Below, piece after piece: positions 11,070 through 17,729 of a DNA stretch of 56,408 bases. Every line of letters starts with the position of its first letter. Position 1 is the stretch's first letter. This stretch comes from Clostridia bacterium (lineage in GTDB: Bacteria; Bacillota; Clostridia; Oscillospirales; Acutalibacteraceae), in assembly GCA_017415025.1 (NCBI GenBank), contig JAFQJH010000005.1:1-56408 (forward strand), read 5' to 3'. The position numbers and the translations under genes are program-made. The notes beneath the pieces were generated by a model that worked only from the letters and a program-made list of their open reading frames with translations, searched no databases and was not told the origin of the DNA.

Positions 11070-11080
11070 CAGTTTTCCCT

Positions 11081-11100
11081 GCCCTGCGCAGGGATTTTTT
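11081..11100 (+). terminator. Short intrinsic terminator
   Basis: The GC-rich palindrome CCCTGCGCAGGG is followed by ATTTTTT, 11 bases after the stop at 11069. Confidence 0.6.
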
Positions 11101-11109
11101 GTAAACGGC

Positions 11110-11134
11110 GAAACCTGCGGCAGTTTTTTTCGTA
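11110..11134 (+). promoter_or_regulatory. Candidate ECF-type autoregulated promoter
   Basis: GAAAC at 11110-11114 and CGTA at 11131-11134 are 16 bp apart, the layout of group ECF promoters (GAAC-like -35, CGT-like -10). No good sigma-A -35 fits here. It precedes the ECF sigma gene by about 35 bases, so autoactivation is inferred. Confidence 0.35.
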
Positions 11135-11142
11135 TTTTATTA

Positions 11143-11156
11143 TGAAAACGTTTTCA
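11143..11156. promoter_or_regulatory. Perfect 14-bp palindrome resembling a CcpA cre site
   Basis: TGAAAACGTTTTCA matches the catabolite-responsive element pattern with its central CG. It lies directly before the AGGAGGT of the sigma factor, where a bound LacI/CcpA-type repressor would block transcription. Catabolite control of the ECF-serpin unit is an inference. Confidence 0.5.
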
Positions 11157-11169
11157 AGGAGGTGTGCTG

Positions 11170-11727
11170 ATGGAGGACAGCAGAATTGTTGAATTATACT
11201 GGCAACGTGACGAGTCGGCAATTTCCGAAACTCAGCAGAAATACGGAAATTATCTGACCAGAATTGCCTATAACATCCTTGCGGATGTTGAGGACAGCAG
11301 GGAAAGTGTAAATGATACATACCTCAAGGCGTGGTATTCGATGCCGCCGCAAAAGCCGATTGCCCTTTCGACATTTCTCGGAAGAATTACACGGCAGATT
11401 TCCATTGATATCTACCGCAAAAGGAATGCCAAAAAGCGACAGGGCTCTGAATACGCGCTCGCGCTTGACGAGCTTCACGACTGCGCTTCGTTCGAAGGTG
11501 CACCCGAAAAGGAAGTTGAAGCCGAACTGCTCGCAAAATGCATCAGCGACTATCTGATGACACTTTCCGACGAGGCGAGGAACATTTTTTTGTGCAGATA
11601 CTATTTCCTCGACAGCGTGCGTGAAATTGCAGAGCATTTCGGCGCAGGCGAATCAAAAGTCAAAAGCTCTCTCCACCGCACACGGCTCGGACTTAAAAAA
11701 CATCTCGAAAAGGAGGGCCTTTTATGA
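11170..11727 (+). CDS. ECF-type RNA polymerase sigma factor
   Basis: The protein has 185 residues. The ATG at 11170 follows AGGAGGT by 6 bases; a GTG at 11164 is too close. Region 2 is seen in RIAYNILADVEDSRESVNDTYLKAW, with FLGRITRQISIDIYRKRNAKKR as its DNA-melting end. Region 4 is seen in LSDEARNIFLCRYYFLDSVREIAEHFGAGESKVKSSLHR. No region 1 or 3 is present, as expected for ECF members. Its last 4 bases overlap the serpin gene (ATGA), the usual coupling of a sigma factor with its membrane anti-sigma partner. A cre-like palindrome and an ECF-like promoter lie just upstream. Confidence 0.88.
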   Translation: MEDSRIVELYWQRDESAISETQQKYGNYLTRIAYNILADVEDSRESVNDTYLKAWYSMPPQKPIALSTFLGRITRQISIDIYRKRNAKKRQGSEYALALDELHDCASFEGAPEKEVEAELLAKCISDYLMTLSDEARNIFLCRYYFLDSVREIAEHFGAGESKVKSSLHRTRLGLKKHLEKEGLL

Positions 11728-13211
11728 AACCTGAAAAATTGAGTGATGCTATCGGTTTGCTTGACGATAAAATCATAAAATCTGCCGAAGAAAGCAGAAA
11801 AACAAAAAAGAAAAATAAGCGGTGGATAAAATGGGTTGCCGTTGCCGCATGCTTTTGCCTGGTTATTGTAGGTGTTGCAGGACATTTCGGTCGTATTCCG
11901 CCCGATAACGGGGGCTTCGGGACAAACCCGAATGTCAATAACAATCCGCCCGTTGTGAACTTTCTTTCCCACAAAATCAGCGAAGCAAAATACCCCGAAA
12001 CGGTTGATTACCCGCAGGAAAATATGTTGAACCTTAACTTTGAAAGCTACTCCAAGGCTCTCGATGAATGGCACGAGTTTGACGAAGCAAGGCTCGACAA
12101 CCGACTTGATATCAAAAATTATTCTTCATTCCTGACAACGAGCACAAAAAGCTTCTTCAAGGGTAACAAGGATAATCTCGTCTACTCCCCTGTCAACGTC
12201 TACCTTGCGCTGAGTATGCTTGCGGAAACCACGGGCAACAACTCGCGTGCGCAGATACTCGACCTGCTCGGCACAGACAGCATTGAAGCAATAAGAAATA
12301 ACGCCAACAAGCTGTGGCTGAGCAACTATATGGACGACGGTGTGACAACAAATATTCTTGCCAATTCCGTGTGGCTGAACGAGGATATGGAATACAACAA
12401 ATCCACGCTTGACATTCTTGCAGAAAAATATTACGCATCCTCCTTCAAGGGAAAAATGGGAAGTAACGGCTACAACAAAGCCTTGCAGAAATGGCTAAAC
12501 GACCAGACAGGCGGTCTGCTCAAGGAAGAGGCCTCGCAGGTTGAATTTAACGACAACACTATTCTCGGACTTGCAAGCACCGTTTATTTCAAGGCACGCT
12601 GGGACAGCGAGTTCAACGAAATCAACACCGCACCCGATACCTTCAACGGCAAAAACGGCAAGCAGACAGTTGATTTTATGAATCAGACATCAGCTAACGA
12701 TTATTACTATGACGATAATTATTCCGCCGTTGCGATGCGCTTTACCAACCACTCGGCGAAGATGTGGCTGATTCTCCCTGACGAGGACACAACGCCCGAA
12801 AAGCTCATTCAGAGCGGTGACGTTGACCCTATTCTTACGGGCAGCAAACCGAAAAACTGCAAGCCTTATGCACTCATCAACCTTGCTATGCCGAAGTTTG
12901 ATGTTTCCTCAACTCTCGACCTGAGACAAAACCTCAAGCAGCTCGGTGTAACCGATGTTTTTGATGACGAAAAGGCTGATTTTTCACCGACCTTCAACTC
13001 CGCCGCTTATGTCAGTATGATGCAGCACAGCGCGAGAGTTACGGTTGATGAGGAGGGCTGCACCGCCGCGGCATTCACTGTTGTAGGTGTTGACGGTATG
13101 GCAGAGCCAAAGGATATTATCGACTTCAGACTTGACAGACCTTTCATCTTTGTAGTCACTGCTGACGATTCGACTCCCCTGTTTGTGGGCATAGTAAACA
13201 ATGTGCAGTAA
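11724..13211 (+). CDS. Serpin with anti-sigma-like N-terminus and transmembrane helix
   Basis: The protein has 495 residues. Residues 1-33 are a short charged cytoplasmic segment (LSDAIGLLDDKIIKSAEES) resembling the N-termini of membrane proteins encoded after ECF sigma factors in gut Clostridia. Residues 34-54 are one transmembrane helix, 57-100 a Pro/Asn-rich linker, and about 125-495 a complete serpin domain outside the cell. Serpin landmarks are NLVYSPVNVYLALSML, STVYFKARW and RPFIFVVTADDSTPLFVGIV. The reactive-loop hinge EEGCTAAAFT (443-452) keeps small residues but has Cys at P14 instead of Thr/Ser. Counting as in antitrypsin puts P1-P1' at Met459-Ala460, suggesting an elastase-like target. 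An inhibitory surface serpin that also controls the sigma factor is inferred from gene order. Confidence 0.85.
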   Translation: MKPEKLSDAIGLLDDKIIKSAEESRKTKKKNKRWIKWVAVAACFCLVIVGVAGHFGRIPPDNGGFGTNPNVNNNPPVVNFLSHKISEAKYPETVDYPQENMLNLNFESYSKALDEWHEFDEARLDNRLDIKNYSSFLTTSTKSFFKGNKDNLVYSPVNVYLALSMLAETTGNNSRAQILDLLGTDSIEAIRNNANKLWLSNYMDDGVTTNILANSVWLNEDMEYNKSTLDILAEKYYASSFKGKMGSNGYNKALQKWLNDQTGGLLKEEASQVEFNDNTILGLASTVYFKARWDSEFNEINTAPDTFNGKNGKQTVDFMNQTSANDYYYDDNYSAVAMRFTNHSAKMWLILPDEDTTPEKLIQSGDVDPILTGSKPKNCKPYALINLAMPKFDVSSTLDLRQNLKQLGVTDVFDDEKADFSPTFNSAAYVSMMQHSARVTVDEEGCTAAAFTVVGVDGMAEPKDIIDFRLDRPFIFVVTADDSTPLFVGIVNNVQ

Positions 13212-13334
13212 CTATCCATCGGCGCGAAGAACAAAAGAAAACGTGTAAAAGGTAATCGGCTTGCAGTTTAATTAACTGCAAGCCGATTATTTCGTATATG
13301 TTTCTTTTGTTCTTCATCTCAGCTGAATAGTTAC
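13208..13334. repeat. 127-bp nested inverted repeat spanning the two stop codons
   Basis: Three arms are mirrored about one centre: GTAACTA / TAGTTAC at the ends, GAAGAACAAAAGAAA (13226-13240) / its exact complement (13301-13315), and a 16-bp inner stem at 13253-13289. The outer arms hold the stop codons of both convergent genes. Confidence 0.75.
13253..13289. terminator. Bidirectional terminator between serpin and YgjV-like genes
   Basis: TAATCGGCTTGCAGTT and AACTGCAAGCCGATTA are exact 16-bp arms with a 5-base loop. They are the core of the larger inverted repeat and serve two convergent genes. Confidence 0.7.
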
Positions 13335-13882
13335 TCTGTCTCACTTTCAACTTTGACTGTTTCTTTTTTCTTATTTCTTATAAGTGCGACAATAATTGAA
13401 ATGAGTACGAAAACCTCATTTGCCGTGCCTGCCCATGATTGGTTGTTGATGTTATAGATAAACCAGCAGACACAGACGGGAATCGTGAGCAAGCGGAGAT
13501 GTTTTACGTTAACCTGCCACTGTGCAACAATTGCAAAAACGGAAGCGATAAGCGGAAGCACGCTCCACGCATCCTTCCACGTAAGAAGAGTTGACACAAC
13601 AGAAAGAATAAGGAAAATTATCGGAATCGTTTTTGATTCAATCTGCCTGCCCTCCTTGAAGCTGAAAATGAAGTTTTTAACAGCGCCGAGGAAATTCATC
13701 GCAACGGGTGTGAAAAGTCCTAAAAACGTGTAATGACAGCACCAGAGAAGCGCACACAAAACCATTAAAAGCATTACCTTTTTGTGCTTATTGAATTGGT
13801 ACATTGAAATTGAAACAAGCATCGCAAGGAATCCGAAAACCTGCGCAATTATAAACGAATTATCTTTAATAAAATCAAGCAT
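13331..13882 (-). CDS. YgjV-family inner membrane protein
   Basis: The protein has 183 residues. The ATG at 13882 follows AGAGGT by 7 bases; the upstream TTG has no ribosome site. About six hydrophobic segments cover most of the chain, starting QVFGFLAMLVSISMYQFNKHKKVMLL and including CHYTFLGLFTPVAMNFLGAVKNF. This matches the Imp-YgjV family (PF10688), whose function is not established. The C-terminal tail is charged (RNKKKETVKVESETE). It converges on the serpin gene, and its start is 98 bases from family B repeat copy 2. Confidence 0.75.
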   Translation of the reverse strand: MLDFIKDNSFIIAQVFGFLAMLVSISMYQFNKHKKVMLLMVLCALLWCCHYTFLGLFTPVAMNFLGAVKNFIFSFKEGRQIESKTIPIIFLILSVVSTLLTWKDAWSVLPLIASVFAIVAQWQVNVKHLRLLTIPVCVCWFIYNINNQSWAGTANEVFVLISIIVALIRNKKKETVKVESETE

Positions 13883-13979
13883 ACTCTTTACCTCTGAAAT
13901 AAAGTCCAAAACATTTTATCACAGAAAAACTAAAAATACAAATGTTTTTGACGTAAAGATAATTTGGAGTTTATCGATG

Positions 13980-14353: not shown

Positions 14354-15403
14354 ATGAAAATTGAGCTTATAGGTAAGACAGAAACTGTTATGTCCAACCC
14401 CGACAGCCGTCACGGGTATTTTGCGTGGCCTACCGCTGTCCGTCTGCAGGACGGACGCATTATGGTCGGTGCATCGGGCTTTCGTCTTGAGCACGTATGT
14501 CCCTTCGGAAAGGCCGTTGTTGCTTACAGCTCGGATGAGGGTAAAACCTATACTCGTCCCGCGCCCGTTATCGACACTCCGCTTGATGACAGGGATGCGG
14601 GTCTGTGCACCTTCGGAGATAACGGCGTTATAATAACGTCCTTTAACAATTCCGCTGATTTTCAAAGACAGAACAACACGGACAACGAATACGTACAGCG
14701 TTATATTGACACAATCACCGCCGAGGATGAGGAAAAATATCTCGGCTCGCTCTTCCGTATCAGCCGCGATTGCGGTGTGACCTTTGGTGAGCTCCATCAC
14801 TCCCCCGTCACCTGTCCGCACGGCCCGACCGAGCTTCGCGATGGCACAATCCTCTGGGCAGGCAACCGTTTTGACGACGTTGAAGGCGGTATTGAAATTG
14901 TAAAGCTTGACACACAGACCTGCGAAACCGAATTCGTAGGCAAAATCACAATTGACGATAAAAGCATTTTTCTCAACGAGCCGTATCTGCTCGAGCTGCC
15001 CGACGGCAAGCTTATCTGTCACATCAGGGCAGAAAACGACAAGGTTTTCACCACCTGTCAGAGCGTTTCTTATGACAAGGGCAGAACGTGGACAAAGCCC
15101 GAAAGACTTCTAGAAGAGGACGGCGGAGCACCGCCTCATCTTATTCAATTAAAATCAGGTGTCATTATTTCAACCTACGGCAGAAGAAAACAGCCCTACG
15201 GCATTATGGCAATGATAAGCACGGACGGCGGCGAAAGCTGGGAAAAAGACATCCGACTTTATGAAAACACGGGCAGTGACGACCTCGGATATCCGACTAC
15301 GATTGAGCTTGATGACGGCACACTGCTGACAGTTTTTTACGCAACCGACTGCGACGGCATCCCCTGCAATATTTTACAGCAGAGGTGGCAAATTACTTTC
15401 TAA
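14354..15403 (+). CDS. Sialidase-fold (BNR/Asp-box) protein, GH33-like
   Basis: The protein has 349 residues and no signal peptide. Three Asp-box motifs mark a six-bladed propeller: SSDEGKTYTRP (about 59-69), SYDKGRTWTKP (about 240-250) and STDGGESWEKD (about 285-295). The frequent DGRI, DGTIL and DGKLI strands fit too. In true GH33 sialidases an Arg triad, an Asp and a Tyr/Glu pair are catalytic. Arg residues are present in plausible blades but I cannot assign the triad, so it may instead be a related exo-glycosidase. It would act inside the cell on imported sugars. It is followed by a separately promoted two-component system. Confidence 0.7.
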   Translation: MKIELIGKTETVMSNPDSRHGYFAWPTAVRLQDGRIMVGASGFRLEHVCPFGKAVVAYSSDEGKTYTRPAPVIDTPLDDRDAGLCTFGDNGVIITSFNNSADFQRQNNTDNEYVQRYIDTITAEDEEKYLGSLFRISRDCGVTFGELHHSPVTCPHGPTELRDGTILWAGNRFDDVEGGIEIVKLDTQTCETEFVGKITIDDKSIFLNEPYLLELPDGKLICHIRAENDKVFTTCQSVSYDKGRTWTKPERLLEEDGGAPPHLIQLKSGVIISTYGRRKQPYGIMAMISTDGGESWEKDIRLYENTGSDDLGYPTTIELDDGTLLTVFYATDCDGIPCNILQQRWQITF

Positions 15404-15459: not shown

Positions 15460-16134
15460 TTGAGAATACTTGTCGCTGAAGATGAAAAGAGCCTTAACAG
15501 AGTTATTACAAAGCAATTAAAAGCCTCGGGTTACAGCGTTGACAGTTGCTTTAACGGCGAAGAGGCTTATGATATGATTAGCATGACGGAGTACGATGCG
15601 GCTGTTTTTGACGTTATGATGCCGAAAACTGACGGCTTTACTCTTCTTAAAAAAATCCGCAGGGAGGGCAACGAGCTTCCCGTTTTATTCCTCACGGCGC
15701 GTGACAGCATTGAGGACAGAGTTGAGGGACTCGACATCGGTGCAGACGACTATCTCGTCAAGCCCTTCGCTTTTGAGGAGCTTCTTGCAAGAATACGTGT
15801 TCTTATCCGCAAAAACAGCGTTTCAAAGTCAAACGTCATCTGTGTCGGCGACCTCACGGTTGACATCTCGAGCAGAACCGTATCCAGAAACGGCAGCATC
15901 ATTCAGCTTTCCGCCAAGGAATATGAGCTTCTGCAATATCTTGCCGTCAATAACGGTATCGTCCTCAGCCGCGAAAAGATTGAAGACCACATCTGGAATT
16001 ACGATTATGAGGGCGGCACAAACGTTGTTGACGTTTACATCCGATATCTTCGTAAAAAAATCGACGATAACTACGACGTAAAGCTCATCCATACCGTCCG
16101 CGGAATGGGATATGTGCTGAGGGTGGAAAAATGA
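15460..16134 (+). CDS. OmpR/PhoB-family response regulator
   Basis: The protein has 224 residues. The start is TTG at 15460, 8 bases after AAAGGAG. The receiver domain has the acidic pocket (AEDE, residues 6-9), phosphoacceptor Asp51 in FDVMMP, Thr79 and Lys101 (LVKPF). The C-terminal winged helix has the usual LSAKEYELLQYLAVNNGIVLSRE, VVDVYIRYLRKKID and VRGMGYVLR. It overlaps the kinase gene by 4 bases. The tandem 11-bp repeats before its own operon and before the PepSY genes are its likely DNA targets. Confidence 0.92.
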   Translation: MRILVAEDEKSLNRVITKQLKASGYSVDSCFNGEEAYDMISMTEYDAAVFDVMMPKTDGFTLLKKIRREGNELPVLFLTARDSIEDRVEGLDIGADDYLVKPFAFEELLARIRVLIRKNSVSKSNVICVGDLTVDISSRTVSRNGSIIQLSAKEYELLQYLAVNNGIVLSREKIEDHIWNYDYEGGTNVVDVYIRYLRKKIDDNYDVKLIHTVRGMGYVLRVEK

Positions 16135-17729
16135 AAAAAATATCGTTCAAAACAATAACTACCTTATGGATTACCGTTCTTATCACCGCCGTTTGTGCGC
16201 TGAATTTTGTGACGGTTATGATTACAAGTCAGCGCACGGCCGACGACAAAATCAAGCAGACCGTTATCGCCGCCGTTGAAGGTAACGCCGACGAAATGGA
16301 ATACAGCAACGGTGTTTTTGAGGTTGAAAATGATTTTATTTTCTTCTCGGGCGGAATTTACTGCGATATTTTCACTCAAAGCGGTGACTATATCGTCGGT
16401 CAGACTCCCGAATCACTGCTTTTTGCACCTAAAAAGCAAAGCGAAAGCGTTGACGAGAAGGAAATCGGCGGTGAAAAATATTACGTTTACAGCGAGCTTA
16501 TGAGCTTTACCAAATTCGAATATGAGATTGACGTGCTGTCGGGCAAGATAATCTCGTATGAGGCTGATGTAACCCCTGTTCAGCCCTTGACCCCGACCCC
16601 CTATTCCGACACGAAATTTCAGGACGGAATAAGCACCGAGCAGGCAATCGAAATTGCACTTGAGCACGCCCGGATACCCGCGGACGAGGCCGAAATCATT
16701 GCCGTCGAGCTCAACACCTACCACGACAGAAACATTTTTAAAATCGACTTTACTTCGGATGCATCGAACTACGAAAAGGTTTACATCCGTGCCGTTTGTC
16801 CGATAGACGATACCTCCGCCGTGTTCAATACCGTCGGCAGGAACGCGCTTTATCTCTTCCCGATATTTATCGTAATCGCCGCAATCGGTGCATACATCAT
16901 CACGAAGAAAACCGTCCGTCCGATAGAGAAAATCACGGCATCCGCCCGCGAGATTTCCTCGGGCAAGGACCTTTCAAAGCGACTTGACACAAGCAAGGCT
17001 CCCGGCGAAATCCACACGCTCGGCGAAACCTTCAACGGTATGTTTGAGAGACTTCAGGACTCGTTTGAAAACGAAAAAAGATTCACCTCCGACGCGTCCC
17101 ACGAGCTGCGTACACCCCTTGCCGTTATCAAGGCGGAGTGTGAATATGCGCTTTCTGACAACGCTGATGACGAGGACAAGCTGGAGGCACTCATTTCCGT
17201 CAAAGAGCAGACAGACAAGATGACAGCGCTGGTATCTTCACTCCTCGCCGTTACAAGAGCCGAACAGCAGTCACGGCGCATCACTCTTGAGCAGGGAAAC
17301 ATAAGCGCTCTGCTGACAGAGGTATGTGATAAATTCATCACCACAAAGGGCATTACCTTACACCGCAATATTGAAAAAGACATTTATATAAATATGAATG
17401 CAACGCTCATAACACAGCTTGCGGAGAATCTTATTTCCAACGCCGATAAATACGGCAAGGAAAACGGCACAATCGACGTCAGCCTGAAAAAAGCTGATAA
17501 CGGCATTATTCTTTGTGTAAGAGATAACGGTATCGGAATCAGCGCGGATGACCTGCCGAAAATCTGGAACAGATTTTTCAGAGCAGATGCTTCCCGTTCG
17601 GAAACAGAGGGCTTCGGTCTCGGACTTGCGCTTGTAAAAAACATCGCAGAAATCCACGATGCCGAATGTGACGCAAAATCCGAAATCGGCAAATTTACGG
17701 AAATTTCAATAACTCTTAAAAATTTTTAA
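16131..17729 (+). CDS. Sensor histidine kinase with PepSY-like extracellular domain
   Basis: The protein has 532 residues. Transmembrane helices lie at about 9-32 and 238-258. The outer part (33-237) includes a PepSY-like region: FEYEIDVLSGKIISYEADV, then ISTEQAIEIALEHARIPADEA and a strand-rich end. HAMP covers about 259-312. The phosphoacceptor is His324 in DASHELRTPLA. The ATP-binding domain shows ENLISNADKYG (N box), VRDNGIGI (G1), WNRFFRAD (F box) and GFGLGLALVK (G2). The chain is complete. The sensor shares its fold with the secreted PepSY proteins encoded next door, which suggests they interact or sense the same ligand or protease. Confidence 0.9.
   Translation: MKKISFKTITTLWITVLITAVCALNFVTVMITSQRTADDKIKQTVIAAVEGNADEMEYSNGVFEVENDFIFFSGGIYCDIFTQSGDYIVGQTPESLLFAPKKQSESVDEKEIGGEKYYVYSELMSFTKFEYEIDVLSGKIISYEADVTPVQPLTPTPYSDTKFQDGISTEQAIEIALEHARIPADEAEIIAVELNTYHDRNIFKIDFTSDASNYEKVYIRAVCPIDDTSAVFNTVGRNALYLFPIFIVIAAIGAYIITKKTVRPIEKITASAREISSGKDLSKRLDTSKAPGEIHTLGETFNGMFERLQDSFENEKRFTSDASHELRTPLAVIKAECEYALSDNADDEDKLEALISVKEQTDKMTALVSSLLAVTRAEQQSRRITLEQGNISALLTEVCDKFITTKGITLHRNIEKDIYINMNATLITQLAENLISNADKYGKENGTIDVSLKKADNGIILCVRDNGIGISADDLPKIWNRFFRADASRSETEGFGLGLALVKNIAEIHDAECDAKSEIGKFTEISITLKNF

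What the first reader, a model, noticed from the sequence alone, without database searches (positions are those of the whole stretch)
11110..13211. Membrane serpin that looks like the anti-sigma partner of an ECF sigma factor
Seen: an ECF sigma gene and a serpin gene overlap by ATGA. The serpin protein has a short charged cytoplasmic N-terminus, one transmembrane helix, a flexible linker and a full extracellular serpin domain. Known: ECF sigma genes are commonly followed by their membrane anti-sigma factors; inhibitory serpins trap a protease by inserting the cleaved reactive loop, a very large shape change. Inferred: cleavage of the loop (P1 Met459) by a gut or host protease could transmit a signal to the N-terminus and free the sigma factor, giving a one-shot protease sensor. 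I know of no characterised system that uses a serpin this way.
Basis: partly seen in the sequence, partly recalled or inferred. Interest (0 to 1): 0.85.

Follow-up and report, generated by a model that had tools for sequence, protein, structure and literature searches.

The report
Serpin-tipped anti-sigma factor in gut Clostridia
A gut bacterium carries a gene pair in which a protease trap (a serpin) sits outside the membrane on what looks like the inner 'off switch' of a gene-activating sigma factor, so that an attacking protease could both be trapped and be reported to the cell's genes; the binding and the signalling have not been tested.

Summary
An ECF sigma gene (ATG 11170-11727) overlaps by ATGA a 495-aa protein (11724-13211): charged N-terminus, one membrane helix, linker, full serpin domain with an inhibitory-type hinge. 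The pair forms its own unit between two terminator-like hairpins.

The anti-sigma reading is strongly supported by comparison. The first ~50 residues are a module: of 70 proteins read that carry it, 69 directly follow an ECF sigma gene (61 overlapping by 4 nt), yet only 15 are serpins. A second copy in the same genome, without a serpin, overlaps a related sigma. The sigma co-varies more with this segment than with the serpin. Serpins joined sigma-linked modules more than once: 39 fusions among 152 serpin ORFs in the family, 21 more in eight other families of the order. The inhibitory hinge is kept in 39 of 39 and 19 of 21.

Not shown: sigma binding, protease inhibition, or sigma release by protease. 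My best model is a self-replenishing shield, in which spending the serpin frees the sigma that makes more; a pure effector role is the main rival. The papers searched describe no such system. New variant of a known kind.

The parts
11076..11094 (+). terminator-like hairpin with T run, behind the upstream gene
   Evidence: consensus match; 6 such sites in the region, shuffles mean 3.2
11111..11136 (+). ECF-type promoter-like element AAACC-N15-CGTATT
   Evidence: kept in the relative L041 while the spacer and upstream DNA differ; similar elements upstream of 13 of 28 F1 sigma genes (pattern chosen after looking)
11156..11162 (+). ribosome binding site AAGGAGG of the sigma gene
   Evidence: sequence
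11170..11727 (+). ECF sigma factor gene (185 aa from ATG; 187 aa from GTG 11164)
11724..13211 (+). membrane anti-sigma-like serpin gene, 495 aa; ATGA overlap with the sigma gene at 11724-11727
11724..11822 (+). predicted cytoplasmic N-terminal module, residues 1-33 (MKPEKLSDAIGLLDDKII...)
   Evidence: profile A1; 69 of 70 module proteins read lie directly behind an ECF sigma gene
11823..11882 (+). transmembrane helix, about residues 34-53
   Evidence: hydropathy
11883..12119 (+). extracellular linker and pre-serpin extension with the YPExxxYP motif, residues 54-132
   Evidence: the motif belongs to the serpin clade, not to the fusion
12120..13208 (+). serpin domain, residues 133-495
   Evidence: PF00079 residues 146-493; closest solved sequences conserpin and tengpin
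13050..13079 (+). inhibitory-type hinge EEGCTAAAFT, residues 443-452 (P17-P8)
13098..13103 (+). predicted P1-P1' Met459-Ala460 of the reactive loop
   Evidence: counted from P15 Gly445
13250..13292 (+). terminator-like hairpin (19 pairs) behind the serpin gene

Best explanation
The pair is an ECF sigma factor and its membrane anti-sigma factor, whose sensory ectodomain is an inhibitory serpin. The short cytoplasmic module holds the sigma at the membrane. Shown by sequence: the architecture, the module's near-constant link to ECF sigma genes, recurrent fusion to serpins, kept inhibitory hinge, and a pair that stands alone between terminator-like hairpins. Inferred: sigma binding, inhibition of a protease, coupling of serpin loss to sigma release, autoregulation. 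How likely: anti-sigma role about 0.9; protease attack as the releasing signal about 0.5.
For: N-terminal module: 69 of 70 module proteins read have an ECF sigma gene directly upstream, 61 with a 4-nt overlap (the exception begins 35 nt from a contig end); 15 are serpins, 55 are not, and 55 of 55 non-serpins have the sigma. A second copy in the window's own genome (312 aa, no serpin) overlaps a sigma that is related by eye. Sigma distances follow the N-terminus (52 residues) more than the serpin: r 0.71 v 0.29 in 28 of the 29 F1 pairs; without one odd sigma 0.70 v 0.53, and for the first 24 residues 0.65, partial 0.59 v 0.42, against 0.35-0.46 for 40-residue pieces of the serpin. Fusions: 39 of 152 serpin ORFs; 21 more read at 20 loci in eight other families, 18 with the sigma gene within about 30 nt. 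Hinge kept in 57 of 57 sigma-linked serpins and 75 of 87 others (Fisher p 0.003, not corrected for kinship: 6 of the 12 without it are one clade). Between sister species the hinge is 100% identical while the 15-residue loop is 47% (core 83%). A second arrangement, sigma - separate membrane protein - secreted serpin, ties serpins to ECF operons without fusion. An M50 site-2 protease is in the genome.
Against: No binding, inhibition or transcription data. 87 of 144 serpins in the tree carry no sigma link in the DNA read (an upper bound, as some are cut by contig ends), including 11 of the 38 in the window's own clade, so the serpin works without it. The autoregulatory promoter rests on a pattern chosen after looking; it is not above chance in non-serpin module systems (6 of 55, shuffles 3.1) nor in F2 (0 of 8), and the own genome has 4 exact matches to the window's form against 3 for the reversed pattern, so no regulon is visible. 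In the unfused operons the serpin looks like an output, not a sensor. The YPE extension also occurs in unfused relatives. The structure model failed (mean pLDDT 31.8). 4 of the 6 genomes of the genus drawn, own included, lack a serpin.
Confidence: 0.5

Rival explanations
1. Effector only: the N-terminus is a true anti-sigma segment, but the serpin is just the useful product held at the surface by it. The sigma is released by some other cue (membrane or envelope stress, general anti-sigma turnover), and the serpin's loop plays no part in the signal.
For: Unfused operons place a secreted serpin behind a sigma / membrane-protein pair, as an output; unfused relatives in the same clade have lipoprotein-like or membrane-anchor N-termini; the YPE extension is shared with them.
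Against: Module ectodomains differ from locus to locus, as expected of sensors; serpins sit on sigma-linked N-termini of at least three sequence types (sorted by eye) on separate branches of the serpin tree, and 57 of 57 sigma-linked serpins keep an inhibitory-type hinge.
Confidence: 0.33
2. Ligand sensor: the serpin domain binds a non-protease ligand and signals by a partial loop movement, as in non-inhibitory carrier serpins; trapping is not the point.
For: Serpins can move between states without cleavage (known biology, recalled). The target protease is unknown and the P1 residue is not kept between sister species.
Against: Hinge residues P15 and P12-P10 are kept in 39 of 39 fused serpins of the family and the bait loop is the fastest-changing part of the serpin domain, the usual signs of inhibitors.
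Confidence: 0.07
3. No regulatory link: the N-terminus is only a membrane anchor and the sigma gene is a neighbour kept by translational coupling.
For: Overlapping genes are common in bacteria (recalled); no binding data exist; no Pfam anti-sigma model matches the window's protein over its cut-off, and only 2 of 55 non-serpin module proteins match DUF4179, best E 0.0036.
Against: 55 of 55 non-serpin module proteins read also follow an ECF sigma gene; a second copy in the same genome does too; the sigma co-varies with the N-terminus beyond the serpin.
Confidence: 0.06

Closest known systems
RsiV - sigma V of Bacillus subtilis (lysozyme-sensing anti-sigma factor, DUF4179)
   Same: Membrane anti-sigma factor that binds an attacking enzyme, lysozyme, outside the cell and thereby releases its ECF sigma (passages of PMC6066255).
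   Different: Ectodomain is not a serpin; DUF4179 scores 14.7 bits here against a cut-off of 30.1; RsiV's trigger is binding that opens a signal-peptidase site, whereas a serpin would be consumed.
RsiP - sigma P of Bacillus thuringiensis
   Same: Site-1 cleavage by a signal peptidase, then site 2 by RasP: a plausible release route (passages of PMC8844934).
   Different: Responds to beta-lactams with the help of a penicillin-binding protein.
CnrY - CnrH (class II anti-sigma domain)
   Same: Two helices of a short anti-sigma domain hold an ECF sigma (passages of PMC7406223); our segment is about 33 residues.
   Different: No sequence relation shown here; class and binding mode of our module untested.
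Serpins of Bifidobacterium (B. breve, B. longum)
   Same: Gut bacterial serpins under dedicated regulation; the B. breve title speaks of a two-component system and autoregulated serpin expression (title only, in a reference list; paper not held).
   Different: Two-component system; fusion of serpin and regulator is not indicated in that title.
Siropins of Eubacterium siraeum; miropin; tengpin
   Same: Bacterial serpins, siropins from a gut species; tengpin is among the closest solved sequences.
   Different: In the siropin paper a term search found no 'operon', 'transmembrane' or 'signal peptide', and its 'sigma' hits are the supplier; the superfamily study speaks of membrane-anchored prokaryotic serpins and has no 'sigma' in its main text (passages of PMC8233489).

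Membership tests
ECF sigma / membrane anti-sigma pair | Anti-sigma gene next to or overlapping an ECF sigma gene, conserved across species | tested here: met
ECF sigma / membrane anti-sigma pair | Cytoplasmic N-terminus, one transmembrane helix, extracytoplasmic domain | tested here: met
   hydropathy and KKKNKR before the helix, (prediction, not topology data)
ECF sigma / membrane anti-sigma pair | Co-variation of the sigma with the cytoplasmic segment | tested here: met
   direction robust, size of the contrast depends on one outlier
ECF sigma / membrane anti-sigma pair | Physical binding and repression of the sigma | not testable with these tools
   no experiment or complex prediction available
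ECF sigma / membrane anti-sigma pair | Autoregulated ECF promoter | tested here: inconclusive
   footprint, 13 of 28 with a pattern chosen after looking; not above chance in non-serpin systems or F2
Inhibitory serpin (PF00079) | Full-length serpin domain | tested here: met
   7.1e-68, profile 16-369 of 370
Inhibitory serpin (PF00079) | Hinge with Gly at P15 and small residues at P12-P10 | tested here: met
   window EEGCTAAAFT; 39 of 39 fused serpins of the family. In F1, P14 is Val or Cys (29 of 29) and P9 Tyr or Phe (26 of 29), unlike the textbook Thr and Ala (recalled)
Inhibitory serpin (PF00079) | Forms covalent complexes with a protease | not testable with these tools
   needs an assay with purified protein
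RsiV / DUF4179 anti-sigma family | DUF4179 over its cut-off | tested here: not met
   14.7 bits v 30.1; 2 of 55 non-serpin module proteins match, best E 0.0036
Class I (ASDI, zinc) anti-sigma domain | Matches a known anti-sigma domain model | tested here: not met
   no such Pfam or NCBIfam match to the window's protein at E up to 1, nor in the family tables of the 55 non-serpin module proteins
Class II (CnrY-like) anti-sigma domain | Two short helices bridging sigma 2 and sigma 4 | tested here: inconclusive
   length fits; model confidence too low to use

The most novel reading that the evidence does not exclude
Serpins became linked to anti-sigma modules more than once in gut Clostridia because each serpin can be used only once and must be refilled on demand.
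Probability: 0.45. Interest if true: 0.9.

Novelty: new variant of a known kind. Interest (0 to 1): 0.74.

Why it matters
If true, it would be the first signalling use of the serpin mousetrap in a bacterium known to me, a direct route by which gut bacteria sense proteolytic attack (host elastases, pancreatic or rival bacterial proteases), and one reason why many gut Clostridia keep serpins. It also points to a modular anti-sigma family, with a very short sigma-side segment and swappable ectodomains; no Pfam or NCBIfam family was shared by more than two of its 55 non-serpin members scanned. It makes the question of what bacterial serpins are for directly testable.

Tried and rejected
AlphaFold model of the serpin protein from the three sequences allowed (window, L032, L033): mean pLDDT 31.8, not used, no fold search made. 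First promoter pattern (GAAAC type) found in 1 of 39 upstream stretches, shuffles 2.9: rejected; the AACC/TACC pattern was then chosen by eye. Regulon search in the own genome: 4 exact matches v 3 for the reversed control, uninformative. The YPE motif as a signalling element: rejected, as it is in 10 of 11 unfused members of the clade against 19 of 29 F1. Chance neighbour or assembly artefact: rejected, 39 pairs in the family and 21 fusions outside it. DUF4179 membership: below cut-off. One search lists many weak A1 hits that cover only the membrane helix and its list is cut; only 70 proteins from its top were read, in order of E-value, leaving out the window's own row and two rows of genome G065; a few of the 70 are near-copies (such as L193, L198 and L206).

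Full report
WHAT IS THERE. The window holds an ECF sigma gene (GTG 11164 or ATG 11170 to 11727) whose stop overlaps the start of a 495-aa gene (11724-13211) in the sequence ATGA. The ATG at 11170 is the better start, 7 nt behind AAGGAGG. Pfam finds sigma70 regions 2 and 4 in the first protein and a full serpin domain (7.1e-68, residues 146-493) in the second. The second protein has one strongly hydrophobic stretch (about residues 34-53) after a basic run, so the N-terminus should be inside and the serpin outside. A terminator-like hairpin lies before the pair (11076-11094) and a longer one after it (13250-13292). The downstream gene (YgjV-like, 13331-13909) faces the other way. The pair thus looks like its own unit. 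The own genome has one serpin.

HOW OFTEN. A search of 398 genomes of the family finds a serpin in 131 (its list is cut). I read 130 loci from that list, plus the window and L033; three listed rows were not fetched and one only in part. They hold 152 serpin ORFs, some of them fragments or overlapping records. In 39 ORFs the serpin begins within 30 nt of an upstream ECF sigma stop, 23 of them with a 4-nt overlap. By N-terminal sequence, sorted by eye, 8 are of one type (F2, MNNxEKYxxECxxIxAS), 2 of another (F3), and the remaining 29 are called F1, most of them like the window (MKxEKLxDAIGxxDDxLI); L058, whose N-terminus and sigma are both odd, is in F1 by default. In 16 further loci an ECF sigma is followed by a separate membrane protein and then a secreted serpin, in two of them (L021, L128) with one more gene between; these give 18 tree rows, labelled OP. 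One serpin (L011) with a sigma 129 nt upstream was counted as unlinked. In the order, comparison of two searches of 295 genomes gives 20 loci in 19 genomes, in eight families other than the window's, where the N-terminal profile and the serpin profile lie in one frame; the serpin list was cut, so this is a lower bound. Reading these gave 21 fusions: 18 have the sigma gene within about 30 nt upstream, one has it about 250 nt away, and two in tandem lie where the upstream DNA was not fetched.

THE N-TERMINUS IS A MODULE. A profile of 24 N-termini (A1: 23 of the 29 F1 and L052) was searched in the own genome and in 250 genomes of the family. Of 70 proteins read from the top of that list, 69 have an ECF sigma gene directly upstream, 61 of them with the 4-nt overlap; the one exception starts 35 nt from a contig end. 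Only 15 are serpins. The other 55 have varied ectodomains: Pfam gives scattered matches (E up to 0.01), none shared by more than two members, and NCBIfam three single ones. In the window's genome the second clear copy (G000:C28, E 4e-14) is a 312-aa protein without a serpin, overlapping by ATGA a sigma that is related by eye to the window's. F2 behaves alike on a small sample: three of three non-serpin hits also follow a sigma gene. The sigma distance matrix follows the first 52 residues (r 0.71) more than the serpin (r 0.29) over 28 of 29 F1 pairs, one with a cut sigma being left out. Leaving out L058 as well gives 0.70 (0.65 for the first 24 residues) against 0.53, partial correlations 0.59 against 0.42; 40-residue pieces of the serpin give 0.35-0.46; on pairs that are not near-copies the first 24 residues give 0.44 against 0.09. 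This is what an interacting anti-sigma segment would show; physical linkage may add to it.

THE SERPIN LOOKS INHIBITORY. P15 Gly with small P12-P10 is kept in 39 of 39 fused, 18 of 18 operon and 75 of 87 unlinked serpins (Fisher p 0.003, which ignores kinship: 6 of the 12 exceptions are one clade). By the same rule 19 of the 21 outside the family keep it, read from the sequences; the other two (L240, L251) have Val at P11, which the looser pattern of that call allows. Between window and L032 the hinge is identical, the 15-residue loop only 47% identical with dN 0.38, the core 83% with dN 0.09, and dN/dS over the protein is 0.12. A fast loop behind a fixed hinge is usual for inhibitors that follow changing proteases (known biology, recalled). 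The closest solved sequences are conserpin and tengpin, further down antithrombin.

EVOLUTION. In a tree of 144 serpin domains (quick search, SH-aLRT only) the window lies in a clade of 38 with support 100 (27 F1, 11 not fused); F2 and the two F3 lie on other branches, and fused v unfused needs 12 changes. Of the 11 not fused, two (L061, L067) lie within about 220 nt of a contig end and one (L064) within 0.9 kb; the other eight have no sigma gene upstream on their strand in the 2.8 kb or more read. So serpins became linked to sigma loci more than once, and were also lost from them or never joined. On the sigma tree the serpin label needs 11 changes among 83 rows: ectodomains seem to be exchanged. 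Of the six genomes of the window's genus that were drawn, own included, two have a serpin.

PROMOTER. AAACC-N15-CGTATTTTATTATGAAAACGTTTTC is kept between window and L041 while the spacer and the DNA before it differ. Similar elements stand upstream of 13 of 28 F1 sigma genes (shuffles mean 1.8, highest 6), but the pattern was chosen after looking, and it is not above chance in 55 non-serpin systems (6, shuffles 3.1) or in 8 F2 (0). Exact matches to the window's form in the own genome are 4, against 3 for the reversed pattern. Autoregulation is therefore plausible for part of the F1 set and unproved for the window.

HOW IT PROBABLY WORKS. The best model is an anti-sigma factor whose ectodomain is both detector and shield. 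Each serpin molecule can stop one protease; when spent and cleared it can no longer hold a sigma, and the sigma rebuilds the stock. Release could use a signal peptidase and a site-2 protease, as in RsiV and RsiP (passages of PMC6066255 and PMC8844934); an M50 protease is present in the genome. Each step beyond the gene architecture is inference. The strongest rival is a pure effector: the unfused operons suggest that ECF systems in these bacteria can carry a serpin without making it the sensor.

LITERATURE. Searches combining serpin (or serine protease inhibitor) with anti-sigma, ECF or sigma factor list no paper that, from its title and the start of its abstract, treats a serpin anti-sigma factor; the one paper holding 'ECF sigma', 'anti-sigma' and 'serpin' treats them separately (passages). 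The serpin superfamily study speaks of membrane-anchored prokaryotic serpins and has no 'sigma' in its main text (term search and passages). No paper was read whole. Papers outside the held library, and supplements, were not searched.

Noticed in passing
G000:C28:1400-2950 (L135, L158): Paralogous ECF sigma plus a 312-aa module protein with an unnamed ectodomain, overlapping by ATGA.
   Followed up: yes
L131, L124, L119, L008, L030, L130, L026, L128, L005 and others: Operons of ECF sigma, a separate membrane protein that in most cases overlaps it (anti-sigma-like) and a secreted lipoprotein-type serpin.
   Followed up: partly
L079, L068, L084, L074, L085, L082: A clade of six serpins with a hinge unlike inhibitors (TEKGTxKGTxAxV and similar), probably non-inhibitory.
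   Followed up: no
L113, L115, L040, L092, L093, L096, L114, L019: Serpins whose N-terminal part carries GDxNxDGxV-like stretches resembling dockerin repeats (resemblance recalled, not searched), as in cellulosomal serpins.
   Followed up: no
L070 and L247: Two serpin anti-sigma-like genes near each other in one locus (L070: each with its own sigma; L247: in tandem, upstream DNA not fetched).
   Followed up: partly
window 14354-15403 and 15460-17729: A BNR/sialidase-like protein followed by a response regulator and a histidine kinase, downstream of the pair.
   Followed up: no
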